Positions 35,936 to 60,632 of a stretch of 64,000 nt of DNA are shown piece after piece. Source of the DNA: an uncultured Clostridia bacterium (lineage in GTDB: Bacteria > Bacillota > Clostridia > TANB77 > CAG-508); the NCBI GenBank assembly GCA_947590905.1, contig CANQCU010000005.1, positions 1-64,000 of the forward strand, written 5' to 3'. A model generated the notes under the pieces. The model saw only the letters and a program-made list of their open reading frames with translations, had not been told where the DNA came from and did not search any database. Position 1 is the stretch's first letter. Every line of letters begins with the position of its first letter. A program made the translations under genes and the position numbers.

Positions 35936-36787
35936 ATGTTAATATTTGAAATACTGAAATTTATAATTTACTCAGCCCTAATAGTATATATTTCTAAAAA
36001 AATACTAGTGAAATTACTTAGAAAAATTGCAGAAGTTTTAGATTTAAGCCCAAAAGCAGTTGGAAATATAGCAGGCTTTGCAACATCAATGCCAGAGCTT
36101 TTAACAGTATTTTTCTCATCAATACAAGGACTATTTGATGCAAGCATATACAATATAGCAAGTTCAAATATAATAAACATTATTCAATATATGTCTTCAA
36201 TTGCAGTAAATAAAAATAGAAAAGAGTTAAGTAACAAAGCAATAAAAATAGAACTTGGAATAGTTATTGCAACTATATTAATACCAGTATTAATGATTAT
36301 ATTTGGAATAGATGCAAATATTAACATAGTCCCAATATTTATTTTGTTATTCATATTTTGCTATTATATACGTTCAAACGGATATAAACTATATGGAAAG
36401 GCATTTAATAACGAAAGAGAGATAAAGAAAATAGAAGAAGAGAAAAAATGGGTAAAAAACAAATCAAAAATTGCAATAGTAAGTTTTATAGAATTACTGA
36501 TAGTAGGAGTAATACTTTTTGTCGTAGGAAATTTACTCGGAGACACATTGCAAACTTTCAAATTAAGATTTAATATACCAGAAGCAATAATCGGAATAGT
36601 ATTAGGTTTTATAACAAGCATACCAGAACTTATAACCTTCATAGAATCACAAAAACATCATAAAAAGAACAAAAGCAATATAGAGGGAGTAGTAGAAGCA
36701 ACAGAAAACTTATTCTCATCTAATGTAATTAATTTATTTATTATAGAAAGTATAGGAATAATTATGTATGTATTTGTAAGAAGATAA
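35936..36787 (+). CDS. Sodium/calcium exchanger-like membrane protein
   Basis: Two repeats GFATSMPELLTVF / GFITSIPELITFIES; multiple TM segments. Confidence 0.75.
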   Translation: MLIFEILKFIIYSALIVYISKKILVKLLRKIAEVLDLSPKAVGNIAGFATSMPELLTVFFSSIQGLFDASIYNIASSNIINIIQYMSSIAVNKNRKELSNKAIKIELGIVIATILIPVLMIIFGIDANINIVPIFILLFIFCYYIRSNGYKLYGKAFNNEREIKKIEEEKKWVKNKSKIAIVSFIELLIVGVILFVVGNLLGDTLQTFKLRFNIPEAIIGIVLGFITSIPELITFIESQKHHKKNKSNIEGVVEATENLFSSNVINLFIIESIGIIMYVFVRR

Positions 36788-36925
36788 TAATAATGATTTA
36801 TTTTTATAACTGCGTAAGCGATCAAACGTAGCGCAAGCGAAGTGCGAAGTGGAGCAATTTACATATAAATATTTCAATTGAAAATTGCGACAGCAAAGTT
36901 ATAAAAATAAATCATTATTATTATA
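36785..36925. repeat. Intergenic palindrome-bounded repeat, copy A
   Basis: Core CTGCGTAAGCGATCAAACGTAGCG...TTGCGACAGCAAAG; arms AATAATAATGATTTATTTTTATAAC / GTTATAAAAATAAATCATTATTATT. Confidence 0.85.
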
Positions 36926-39144: not shown

Positions 39145-40390
39145 ATGGATATGTCAAAACCACTTGCATATAGAATGATGCCAACGACACTAGAAGAATA
39201 TGTAGGACAAGAGCATATATTAGGACCAGATAAAATTTTATATAGAACAATAAAAGCAGATAGACTATCAAGCATCATACTTTGGGGACCTCCTGGTTGT
39301 GGTAAAACTTCACTCGCAAAAGTAATAAGCAACACAACAAAAACAAAATTCTATAAAATAAATGCAGTAACCTCAGGAGTTACAGAAATAAAGAAAATTA
39401 TAGAAGAAACACAAAATCTACTCTTAAATCCTAGCCGGAAAGTGTATATTGTTTATAGATGAGATACATAGATTTAATAAACTTCAACAAGATGCACTTC
39501 TTCCATCTGTAGAAAATGGGACAGTCATTTTAATTGGAGCAACAACAGAAAATCCATATTTTGAAGTAAACAAAGCTCTTATATCAAGGTCTATGGTTTG
39601 CAGACTAGAGCCACTTGATGTAGAAGACATATATAAAGTATTAAAAAATTCATTAGAAAAAGAAGATGGACTCAAAAGCTTTAATGTAAAAATAGAAGAT
39701 TCTACGCTAAGAAAAATTGCAGAAACAGCCAATGGTGATGTAAGAAATGCATTAAATGGATTAGAAGTTGCCGTACTTACAACAAAAATGGATTCAAACG
39801 GAGTAATAAACATAACAGACGAAATTGCAAAAGATTGTGTAGCTCAGAGAAAAGTTATATTTGATAAAAATGGAGATAGCCACTATGATAATATAAGCGC
39901 ATTCATAAAATCAATGAGAGGTAGTGACCCAGATGCAGCAGTATTTTATTTAGCAAGAGCACTAGCAGGAGGAGAAGACCCAATGTTTTTAGCAAGAAGA
40001 ATAGTAATATTAGCAGCAGAAGACGTAGGCCTTGCAAATCCTAATGCATTGGTAGTCGCAAATTCTGCAATGCAAGCAATACACATGATAGGTATGCCAG
40101 AAGCAAGAATTATTTTATCAGAAGCGGCAATATATGTTGCAAAATCAAAAAAATCAAATTCTGCATATTTAGCAATAGACAAAGCTTTAGAAGATGTAAA
40201 AACAAAAGAAACAGGAGAAATACCAATGCATATTAGAAATGCTCCAGCAGAGGGAATGCATGAGTTTGGATATGGAAATGGATATAAATATCCACATGAC
40301 TATCCAGGACATATTGTAGAGCAACAATATCTTCCAGACGAAATGCTTGGAACAAAATATTATGTAAAAGATGATACAGAGGAGAATTAA
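39145..40390 (+). CDS. rarA: Replication-associated recombination protein RarA, interrupted by one C-GGA +1 site
   Basis: RMMPTTLEEYVGQEHILG, GPPGCGKTSLA; removing C39436 restores SGKCILFIDEIHRFNKLQQDALLPSVE. Confidence 0.94.
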
Positions 40391-49704: not shown

Positions 49705-49855
49705 TAGAAATCGATTATAATTATTTTTTTAAGAACTGCGTAAGCGACCAAACGAAACAAAGCGCAGTGCGATATGGAGCAATCTACATATAAGAAATTT
49801 AATTTGTAGATTGCGACAGCAAAGTTCTTACAAAAAATAATTATATCGATTTCTA
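49705..49855. repeat. Intergenic palindrome-bounded repeat, copy B
   Basis: Arms TAGAAATCGATTATAATTATTTTTTTAAGAAC / GTTCTTACAAAAAATAATTATATCGATTTCTA around core CTGCGTAAGCGACCAAACG...ATTGCGACAGCAAAG. Confidence 0.85.
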
Positions 49856-49888: not shown

Positions 49889-51251
49889 ATGGCAAAAGCA
49901 AAAGCCGTATTTGTATGTAATAACTGTGGATATGAATCAAGCAAATGGCTCGGAAAATGTCCAGCTTGTAATGAATGGAATACTTTTTTCGAGCAAAAAC
50001 TAGATACAAACGTAGCTACAAAAAAGAAAGAAAAAGAGACAGCAAAATCAGTAGCATTAAAAAATGTAGAATATAAAGAAATATCAAGGATTTCCACAGG
50101 ATTTGGAGAGTTAGATAGAGTACTTGGAGGAGGATTAGTAGATGGATCACTAATATTAATTGGTGGAGAGCCAGGAATTGGAAAATCTACATTAATTCTT
50201 CAAATATGTGATAAGATAAAAACAGATAAAATAGTACTTTACGTTTCAGGCGAGGAGTCAGCAGAACAGATAAAATTAAGAGCAGATAGATTAAAGATAA
50301 ATAAAAACAATATCATGTTTTATGGTGAAACAGATATTGACCTAATAGAAAGTGAAATTGAAGAAAAAAAACCAGAGCTTGTAATAATAGATTCTATACA
50401 AACAATCTTTTCTGATAAAGTAGATTCAATACCAGGAAGCATAGGACAATTAAGAGAAATAACTTCAAGAATAATGAGAATGTGCAAAGAGAAGAAAGTA
50501 ACAACTATAATAATCCGGACATGTAACAAAAGACCGGAAACATTGCAGGACCAAGAGTACTAGAACACATGGTAGATGTTGTTTTATATCTAGAAGGAGA
50601 AAGATATTTTTCATATAGAATTTTAAGAGGTGTAAAAAATAGATTTGGTTCAACAAATGAAATTGGAATGTTTGAAATGGAAGGCGAAGGTATGAAAGAA
50701 ATCATAAATCCTTCAGAAATTCTAATTTCAGAAAGAGATGAAAATCCAGCAGGTTCAGTAGTTGTTGCAAGTATGGAAGGGACAAGACCACTTTTAGTGG
50801 AATTGCAGGCTCTTACAACTCAGACACTGTTTGGCTTCCCTAGAAGAACGGCAAATGGAATTGATTATAATAGACTTACACTTCTTATGGCAGTTATAGA
50901 AAAAAGAGTTGGAATTTCTTTATCAAACCAAGATGCATATTTAAATGTAGTAGGTGGAATAAAAATAAATGAACCTGGAATTGATTTAGGAATAGTTTTA
51001 AGTGTTTGTTCAAGCTATAAAAATAAACCTATACCAAATGACATAGTTGTAATAGGAGAAGTTCGGCTTGACAGGCGAGGTTAGAAGAGTAAGCTTAATA
51101 GAAAAACAACTTAAAGAAGCAGAAAAATTAGGATTTAAAAAATGTATTATTCCAGAAAATAATAAAAAACTATTGAAAGAAAACTTTAAATTAGATATAA
51201 TAGGTGTGAAAAATATTAAAGATGCTATGAAAGGAGTACGGACTACTATGA
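49889..51251 (+). CDS. radA: DNA repair protein RadA, interrupted by four C-GGN +1 sites
   Basis: [29 protein letters not shown]; removing C50516, C50535, C51064, C51239 restores [38 protein letters not shown] and terminal GVGLL*. Confidence 0.95.
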
Positions 51252-52327
51252 GAGAAGGCCAAAATGATGTAATCTCAAATATGATAAAAATAGTAGCGCC
51301 AGGTACACAAATAAGAGCAGGATTAAATAATATTTTAAAAGCAAAAACAGGTGGACTAATTGTAATTGGAGATTCTAAAGAAGTATTAGATATAGTAGAT
51401 GGGCGGTTTCAAAATAGATGAAGATTATACAGCTTCAAGATTATATGAACTAGCAAAGATGGATGGCGCAATAGTTTTAAGTAGTGACTTAAAGAAAATA
51501 CTATATGCAAATGCTCAACTTATACCTTCTCCTACTATTGAAACAAAAGAAACAGGAACAAGGCATAGAGCAGCAGAAAGAACTGCTAAGCAAACAGGAG
51601 AAATAGTTATAAGCATATCACAAAGAAGAAATGTTATAACTATGTTTAAAGGAAATATTAGATATCTTTTAGAAGATACTTCAAGGGTACTTACAAAGGC
51701 TAATCAAGGAATACAAACTCTTCAAAGGTATAAAACTGTATTTGATGAAAAACTATTAACATTAAATGAATATGAATTTAACGACATAGTATCATTAGAA
51801 AATGTTATAGTAGCTATTCAAAGAGCAGAAATGGTCATGAAAATTGCAGAAATGGTACAAAGACAAATATATGAGCTTGGAGAAGAGCGGAGAGCTTGTA
51901 AAAATGCAACTAGAAGAAATTATTCGGAAGTCTTGAAAAAGAAGAATTACTTATTATTAAAGATTATATGGTTCAAGATGAGAAAAGAACAGAAGAGGAT
52001 ATATTAAAAGAAATTATATCACTTAACCAAGAAGATCTTATGATAACAGGTACAATTGCAAGAATATTAGGCTATGAAAATTTTGATAATTATGATGAAG
52101 TTGGAGTATATACTAAAGGATATAGAATATTAAATAAAATTCCAAGAATGCCAAATAATATAGTGGACAATTTAGTTAAAAACTTTAAGTCCTTCCAACA
52201 CATATTAATTGCAGATATACCAGACTTAGATAAAGTAGAAGGAATAGGTGAAATAAGGGCTAGAGCTATAAAACAATCACTGCAAAGGATGCAAGAGCAA
52301 TTTGTATTTGATAGAATGCTTATATAA
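51248..52327 (+). CDS. disA: DNA integrity scanning diadenylate cyclase DisA, interrupted by three C-GGN +1 sites
   Basis: [47 protein letters not shown]; removing C51404, C51888, C51925 restores [12 protein letters not shown] and [25 protein letters not shown]. Confidence 0.95.
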
Positions 52328-60483: not shown

Positions 60484-60632
60484 AATAATGTAAATAATTT
60501 AATATTTATAAAGCTGCGTAAGCGATCAAACGTAGCGAAGCGAAGTGCGAAGTGGAGCAATCTACATATAAATTTTTTGATTTGTAGATTGCGACAGCAA
60601 AGCTTAATAAATATTAAATTATTTACATTATT
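60484..60632. repeat. Intergenic palindrome-bounded repeat, copy C
   Basis: Arms AATAATGTAAATAATTTAATATTTATAAAGC / GCTTAATAAATATTAAATTATTTACATTATT around core CTGCGTAAGCGATCAAACGTAGCGAAGCG...GATTGCGACAGCAAAG. Confidence 0.88.

What the first reader, a model, noticed from the sequence alone, without database searches (positions are those of the whole stretch)
36785..36925. Three-copy intergenic element: conserved ~90-nt core inside copy-specific, self-complementary arms (copy A)
Copies at 36785-36925, 49705-49855 and 60484-60632 share the core CTGCGTAAGCGA(T/C)CAAACG...GTGCGA..TGGAGCAAT.TACATATAA...ATTGCGACAGCAAAG. The 25-31 nt arms differ completely between copies but are complementary within each copy (A: AATAATAATGATTTATTTTTATAAC / GTTATAAAAATAAATCATTATTATT). 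All lie downstream of a gene 3' end. Looks like a structured RNA/DNA element or a non-autonomous mobile unit targeting or generating palindromes.
Basis: seen in the sequence. Interest (0 to 1): 0.75.

Follow-up and report, generated by a model that had tools for sequence, protein, structure and literature searches.

The report
Mobile hairpin element with flipping core
Three copies in the window belong to a family of short non-coding mobile hairpins, about 65 in this genome and present in about a third of the related gut species sampled; their two stem arms keep matching each other while differing from copy to copy, and their central part flips in place, probably because DNA replication copies one arm onto the other.

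Summary
The window genome holds about 65 copies of an 88-nt core between ~30-nt self-complementary, copy-specific arms. The core folds into three hairpins supported by strong covariation. No Rfam family matches. The family occurs in 61 of 196 genomes (21 of 39 genera) of one family of gut Clostridia, at varying sites, so it moves. At two sites with ~93-96% identical flanks, a sister species lacks a ~210-nt unit with core and both arms. The palindrome was therefore neither pre-existing nor copied from flanking DNA there; the arms travel with the element. Across 215 copies all four Watson-Crick pairs occur at nearly every arm position, with G.T no commoner than A.C. In 5 of 9 sister-species pairs the core is inverted between its arms. 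Arm homogenisation plus spacer inversion is the published signature of replication template switching between inverted repeats (PMC8604942, PMC8794818). Best reading: a new family of non-autonomous MITE/foldback-like elements whose arms evolve in concert within each copy. In two congeners it rides inside a ~200-bp MITE. The mobilising enzyme is unknown.

The parts
36785..36809 (+). Copy A, 5' arm (AATAATAATGATTTATTTTTATAA; overlaps the stop codon of the upstream gene 35936-36787)
   Evidence: pairing
36810..36898 (+). Copy A, core (three hairpins)
   Evidence: cmsearch 107.4 bits, E 2.3e-28; alignment A1
36812..36819 (+). Copy A, core hairpin 1 (GC-GTAA-GC)
   Evidence: consensus structure
36826..36843 (+). 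Copy A, core hairpin 2 (AC...GT closing a nested GC-GCAA-GC; A-U/C-G covariation at the closing pair)
36854..36888 (+). Copy A, core hairpin 3 (GCAATTTACA...TGAAAATTGC)
36899..36925 (+). Copy A, 3' arm (TTATAAAAATAAATCATTATTATT)
49705..49735 (+). Copy B, 5' arm (between pheT and radA)
49736..49824 (+). Copy B, core
   Evidence: 99.2 bits
49825..49855 (+). Copy B, 3' arm
60484..60513 (+). Copy C, 5' arm
60514..60602 (+). Copy C, core
   Evidence: 108.8 bits
60603..60632 (+). Copy C, 3' arm

Best explanation
It is a non-coding, non-autonomous mobile element of the MITE/foldback kind: a conserved core of three small hairpins closed by a long stem made of its own two arms. SHOWN: the unit, arms included, is present or absent as a whole at orthologous sites; core and arms pair; the core flips between the arms; arms stay complementary through double changes. 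INFERRED: arms are kept complementary at the DNA level, because replication (or arm-to-arm gene conversion) repeatedly switches template between them; the same event inverts the core. Arms are therefore free to drift between copies but not from each other, while the core is held constant by its role and by exchange between copies. INFERRED: the core and stem are the recognition structure for a trans-acting mobilising enzyme, not identified; in some lineages the unit has also been captured by conventional MITEs, which amplified it.
For: About 65 copies in G000 and 61/196 genomes, 21/39 genera, patchy. Two sites with ~93-96% identical flanks are empty in the sister species: ~210 nt including both arms absent, one with a ~9-11 bp T-rich direct repeat (TTTATTTTT) at the ends. 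Core structure: 97.2% of cells paired, 12 of 16 pairs with double changes, 0/500 shuffles as high. Arms: 215/222 copies paired; all four Watson-Crick pairs at nearly every position 11-30; mismatches G.T 166 against A.C 161, so no RNA-type wobble excess; positions 8-28 of the ungapped subset: 2085 of 2163 cells Watson-Crick, G.T 22, A.C 19. Core inverted in 5 of 9 sister-species orthologous pairs (L236/L335, L297/L339, L263/L304, L287/L298, L329/L333 flipped; L265/L352, L277/L403, L338/L399, L330/L451 not) with arms otherwise largely retained. Arms are near-identical between close orthologues yet unrelated between paralogues with near-identical cores, and in one MITE family arms carry compensated multi-base changes (L056, L118, L113). 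Template switching is reported to cause exactly arm homogenisation and spacer inversion (PMC8604942) and multi-base compensatory changes and loop inversions in stems (PMC8794818).
Against: In G000 and G196 copies with nearly identical cores have very different arms, which pure drift does not give; core exchange between copies has to be assumed (mismatched arms L379, L390, L394; arm-swapped pair L417/L418). A partly conserved A.A mismatch 5 nt from the core is not erased by copying. No target duplication is detectable in G000. Presence/absence could be precise deletion in the sister species. All genomes are MAGs; misassembly could mimic some flips or swaps.
Confidence: 0.66

Rival explanations
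1. The core is a parasite of pre-existing hairpins: it inserts into the loop of intrinsic terminators or other palindromes, and the arms are the host stem.
For: Outer arms in G000 are often A-rich on the 5' side and T-rich on the 3' side, like terminator stems of this genome. G014 holds core-less hairpins AGAATAGCTGAAATGATTTATTTCAGCTATTCT of the same MITE.
Against: The two close empty sites contain no hairpin at the insertion point. Orthologous intergenic regions at several sites are only about 10-25 nt long and hairpin-free. Arm length is narrow (mostly 26-34 nt, median 29.75 in G000). The G014 core-less hairpins are explained by deletion between ATTT repeats.
Confidence: 0.1
2. The palindrome is made at insertion: about 12-30 nt of target flank is copied in inverted form onto the other end of the core (inverted target duplication).
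For: Arms are unrelated between copies with near-identical cores; arm length is nearly fixed; one G011 MITE copy (C15:36205) carries a single arm and no core.
Against: Neither arm is in the two empty sites. The G011 single-arm copy is equally a deletion between TGAAA repeats. In the G181 clade the arms of different copies share a consensus.
Confidence: 0.13
3. A family of structured RNAs (for example 3'-end stabilisers or terminators) whose stem is kept by RNA-level selection; dispersal is incidental.
For: Strong covariation of core hairpins; frequent position just after stop codons.
Against: No wobble excess in the arms; both orientations relative to genes and in-place inversion make a strand-specific RNA role unlikely; orthologous sites are usually empty; no Rfam match.
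Confidence: 0.1

Closest known systems
MITEs and foldback-type elements of bacteria (short non-autonomous inverted-repeat elements)
   Same: Short, non-coding, many dispersed intergenic copies, inverted repeats at both sides, presence/absence polymorphism; in G011/G014 a ~200-bp version with TIR GTTACTGGATAAT and 8-bp target duplications.
   Different: In the window genome the inverted repeats are not shared between copies, so no common TIR can be defined; what is conserved is an internal structured core that flips.
Template-switch homogenised inverted repeats (PMC8604942; PMC8794818)
   Same: Arms kept identical by copying, spacer inverted, clustered compensatory changes.
   Different: There described as scattered mutation events in unrelated repeats and RNA genes; here it would shape a whole mobile family with a conserved ~88-nt spacer.
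REP/BIME/REPIN elements and their RAYT (Y1) transposases
   Same: Many short intergenic palindromes.
   Different: The longer core has no REP-like sequence that I recognised, and the genomes richest in copies (G000, G010, G011, G014) have no Y1 transposase.
Retron msr-msd RNA and msDNA-like repeats
   Same: Arms enclosing short hairpins and one longer hairpin (from my own knowledge of retron anatomy).
   Different: No reverse transcriptase near any core in the 30 RT loci checked; RT presence does not track copy number.

Membership tests
MITE | short (<~0.5 kb), non-coding, multi-copy | tested here: met
   about 150-215 nt units, ~65 copies
MITE | terminal inverted repeats shared between copies | tested here: not met
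   arms in G000 unrelated between copies beyond the inner motif; met only for carrier MITEs in G011/G014
MITE | target site duplication of fixed length | tested here: inconclusive
   7/14 carrier MITE copies have >=7/8 matching 8-mers; one of two empty sites shows ~9-11 bp; none detectable in G000
MITE | autonomous relative with the same termini | not tested
REP/REPIN with RAYT | Y1 (RAYT) transposase in the genome | tested here: not met
   PF01797 absent from G000, G010, G011, G014
Retron ncRNA | adjacent reverse transcriptase | tested here: not met
   no core within 30 RT loci
Known RNA families (Rfam 15) | covariance model match | tested here: not met
   no hit at gathering threshold in the window or at E<=5 around copy A; only weak chance hits elsewhere
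Template-switched inverted repeat | arm homogenisation without wobble excess | tested here: met
Template-switched inverted repeat | spacer inversion between sister genomes | tested here: met
   5 of 9 sister-species pairs

The most novel reading that the evidence does not exclude
The mobile unit is the core itself: a folded single strand (DNA or RNA) that moves independently of its arms, with new matching arms formed around it at each new site (hairpin-primed synthesis) and orientation flipping by the same hairpin-transfer process, a mode of bacterial transposition I know of no description of. The lack of any link between core and arm relatedness in G000 does not exclude this, although the two empty sites of the sister clade speak against copying from the target.
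Probability: 0.1. Interest if true: 0.85.

Novelty: new variant of a known kind. Interest (0 to 1): 0.55.

Why it matters
If right, this is a natural, many-copy record of replication template switching in bacteria: each copy reports arm homogenisation and core inversion independently, so rates and strand biases could be measured in populations. It is also a widespread, apparently undescribed mobile family in gut Clostridia whose termini standard repeat annotation would miss, because they are not shared between copies.

Tried and rejected
Rfam: no match. Y1 transposase and reverse transcriptase: no link. Terminator-loop insertion and inverted target duplication: the first contradicted by empty sites and short orthologous intergenics, the second by empty sites. 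Target duplications at fixed or variable offset in G000: no signal over shuffled pairs. Core-less versions of the G139 and G010 carrier repeats: none found. MITE-like hits in G023 turned out to be 3' ends of a repeated gene, not the MITE. IMG/VR pattern scans gave no answer, so carriage by phages is untested. Literature: no paper found describing this family; subscription papers are not held.

Full report
OBSERVATION. The three copies are present as described. A pattern for the core's first 19 bases finds 50 matches in the genome of the window (G000, 1.55 Mb, 33 contigs; window = G000:C5:1-64000) and none for the reversed control. I extracted 43 copies with flanks and scored arm pairing outwards from the core: mean 26.9 against 8.1 for arms taken from different copies.

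CORE. The alignment of 42 cores gives a consensus structure of three hairpins: GC-GTAA-GC; AC...GT around a short GC-GAA-GC; and a longer GCAAYTTACA/TGTAARTTGC. The model R1 finds 65 copies in G000 and matches in 16 of 24 congeneric species, 80 in G011. Over 111 sequences from many genomes 97.2% of cells pair, 12 of 16 pairs show double changes and no shuffle reaches these values (the alignment was fitted to the model, so it leans towards it). The first and last core bases also covary (C/G, T/A, A/T), so the arm stem continues into the core. Rfam has nothing similar.

DISTRIBUTION AND SITES. 61 of 196 genomes in 21 of 39 genera of the family carry it. The named records are uncultured gut Clostridia, many from rabbit judging by their isolate names. 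Orthologous gene junctions are usually empty in other species; the pheT-radA gap that holds copy B is only ~12-24 nt in G006, G011 and G016, without a hairpin. In G000, copies lie between genes, often shortly after a stop codon, in both orientations relative to transcription (crude ORF calls).

ARMS. In G000 the arms are ~30 nt long. About 8-14 nt from the core they share a T-rich motif; composition returns to background at ~31. Across 861 pairs of copies arm similarity is unrelated to core relatedness (rho -0.007, p 0.83), and the outer 12 nt are as different as random flanks. I therefore tested three origins for the arms. (i) Pre-existing hairpins: supported at first by terminator-like outer arms and by core-less hairpins in G014. 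(ii) Inverted copying of target flank: supported at first by one G011 MITE copy with a single arm. (iii) Arms that belong to the element.

DECISIVE DATA. Two sister species (G181 = CANQYM and CANQGE) gave two empty/occupied pairs with 92.6-95.7% identical flanks. In L318/L437 and L340/L436 the whole unit, ~210 nt including both arms, is missing from the other species, and neither arm is at the empty site. The second site has a direct repeat TTTTATTTTTG/ATTTATTTTTA at the ends, in the T-tract of a terminator. This excludes (i) and (ii) for these sites. In the same clade the arms of different copies share a recognisable consensus, roughly TTCTTATAGTATTTATATATAACTTTATAAGTG (read by eye), and arms of orthologous copies are conserved. 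So arms are inherited with the unit and drift.

WHY ARMS STAY COMPLEMENTARY. Over 222 distinct copies from all genomes, 215 have paired arms. At nearly every position from 11 to 30 all four Watson-Crick pairs occur. Mismatches are rare, and G.T (166) is no commoner than A.C (161) (in the ungapped subset, positions 8-28: 22 against 19 among 2163 cells). Selection on an RNA helix would tolerate G.U of that strand; equality points to DNA-level copying. Independently, the core is inverted between its arms in 5 of 9 sister-species pairs (L236/L335, L297/L339, L263/L304, L287/L298, L329/L333), and in one more distant pair (L266/L293). Template switching between inverted repeats is reported to homogenise arms and invert the spacer (PMC8604942), and to produce multi-base compensatory changes and loop inversions in stems, including Firmicutes rRNA (PMC8794818). 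Both signatures occur here together.

CORE EXCHANGE AND CARRIERS. Drift alone does not explain near-identical cores with unrelated arms; exchange of cores between copies must be added. It is visible as mismatched arms in G196 (L379, L390, L394) and as an arm-swapped pair in G139 (L417/L418), with the caveat of MAG assembly. In several species the unit sits inside a larger repeat: a ~200-bp MITE in G011/G014 (TIR GTTACTGGATAAT; 7 of 14 copies, some of them core-less, with >=7/8 matching 8-bp target duplications; core in both orientations within it), and other larger repeats in G010, G139 and G196.

MACHINERY. Y1 transposases are absent from the genomes richest in copies. RT genes are nearly ubiquitous, include group II intron and DGR types by my reading, and none in 30 loci has a core nearby. 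The mobilising enzyme remains unknown; that the core is its recognition structure is inference.

VERDICT. A new family of non-autonomous MITE/foldback-like elements with a structured, invertible core and arms that evolve in concert within each copy. The parts are known kinds; the combination, its spread and the lack of shared termini are unusual. Main limits: MAG assemblies, only two close empty sites (precise deletion not excluded), none in the window species itself.

Noticed in passing
window 49889-52327 and 39145-40390: Conserved genes appear split over frames: a radA-like gene in three ORFs, a disA-like gene in two, and an AAA ATPase (rarA/mgsA-like) in two; MAG base errors or true frameshifts.
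   Followed up: no
L064 (G008), pheT-radA gap: A different palindromic insert, with arms AGTTTGGGAAA/TTTCCCAAACT around another hairpin-rich centre, sits at the same gene junction as copy B.
   Followed up: no
G011/G014 loci such as L091, L100, L119, L193: MITE family of ~200 bp, TIR GTTACTGGATAAT, 8-bp target duplications, carrying the element; in G010 similar ends (...ACCATTATCCTGTAAC) lie at contig ends, perhaps an autonomous relative.
   Followed up: partly
G196 loci L376-L394: The element is nested within repeats of GGGGTCGGTCC present several times on both sides in inverted orientation.
   Followed up: no
L230 (G009), L186-L188 (G023): A retroelement of the diversity-generating type (RT near a lectin-fold-like gene end), and repeated gene 3' ends in G023 that look like related variable proteins.
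   Followed up: no
arms, position 5 from the core, many genera: A recurrent A.A mismatch (55 copies, with A.G in 24) in an otherwise perfect stem; a candidate protein-recognition bulge.
   Followed up: no
L297, L333: Tandem duplication (L297) and triplication (L333) of the element at one site in sister species.
   Followed up: no
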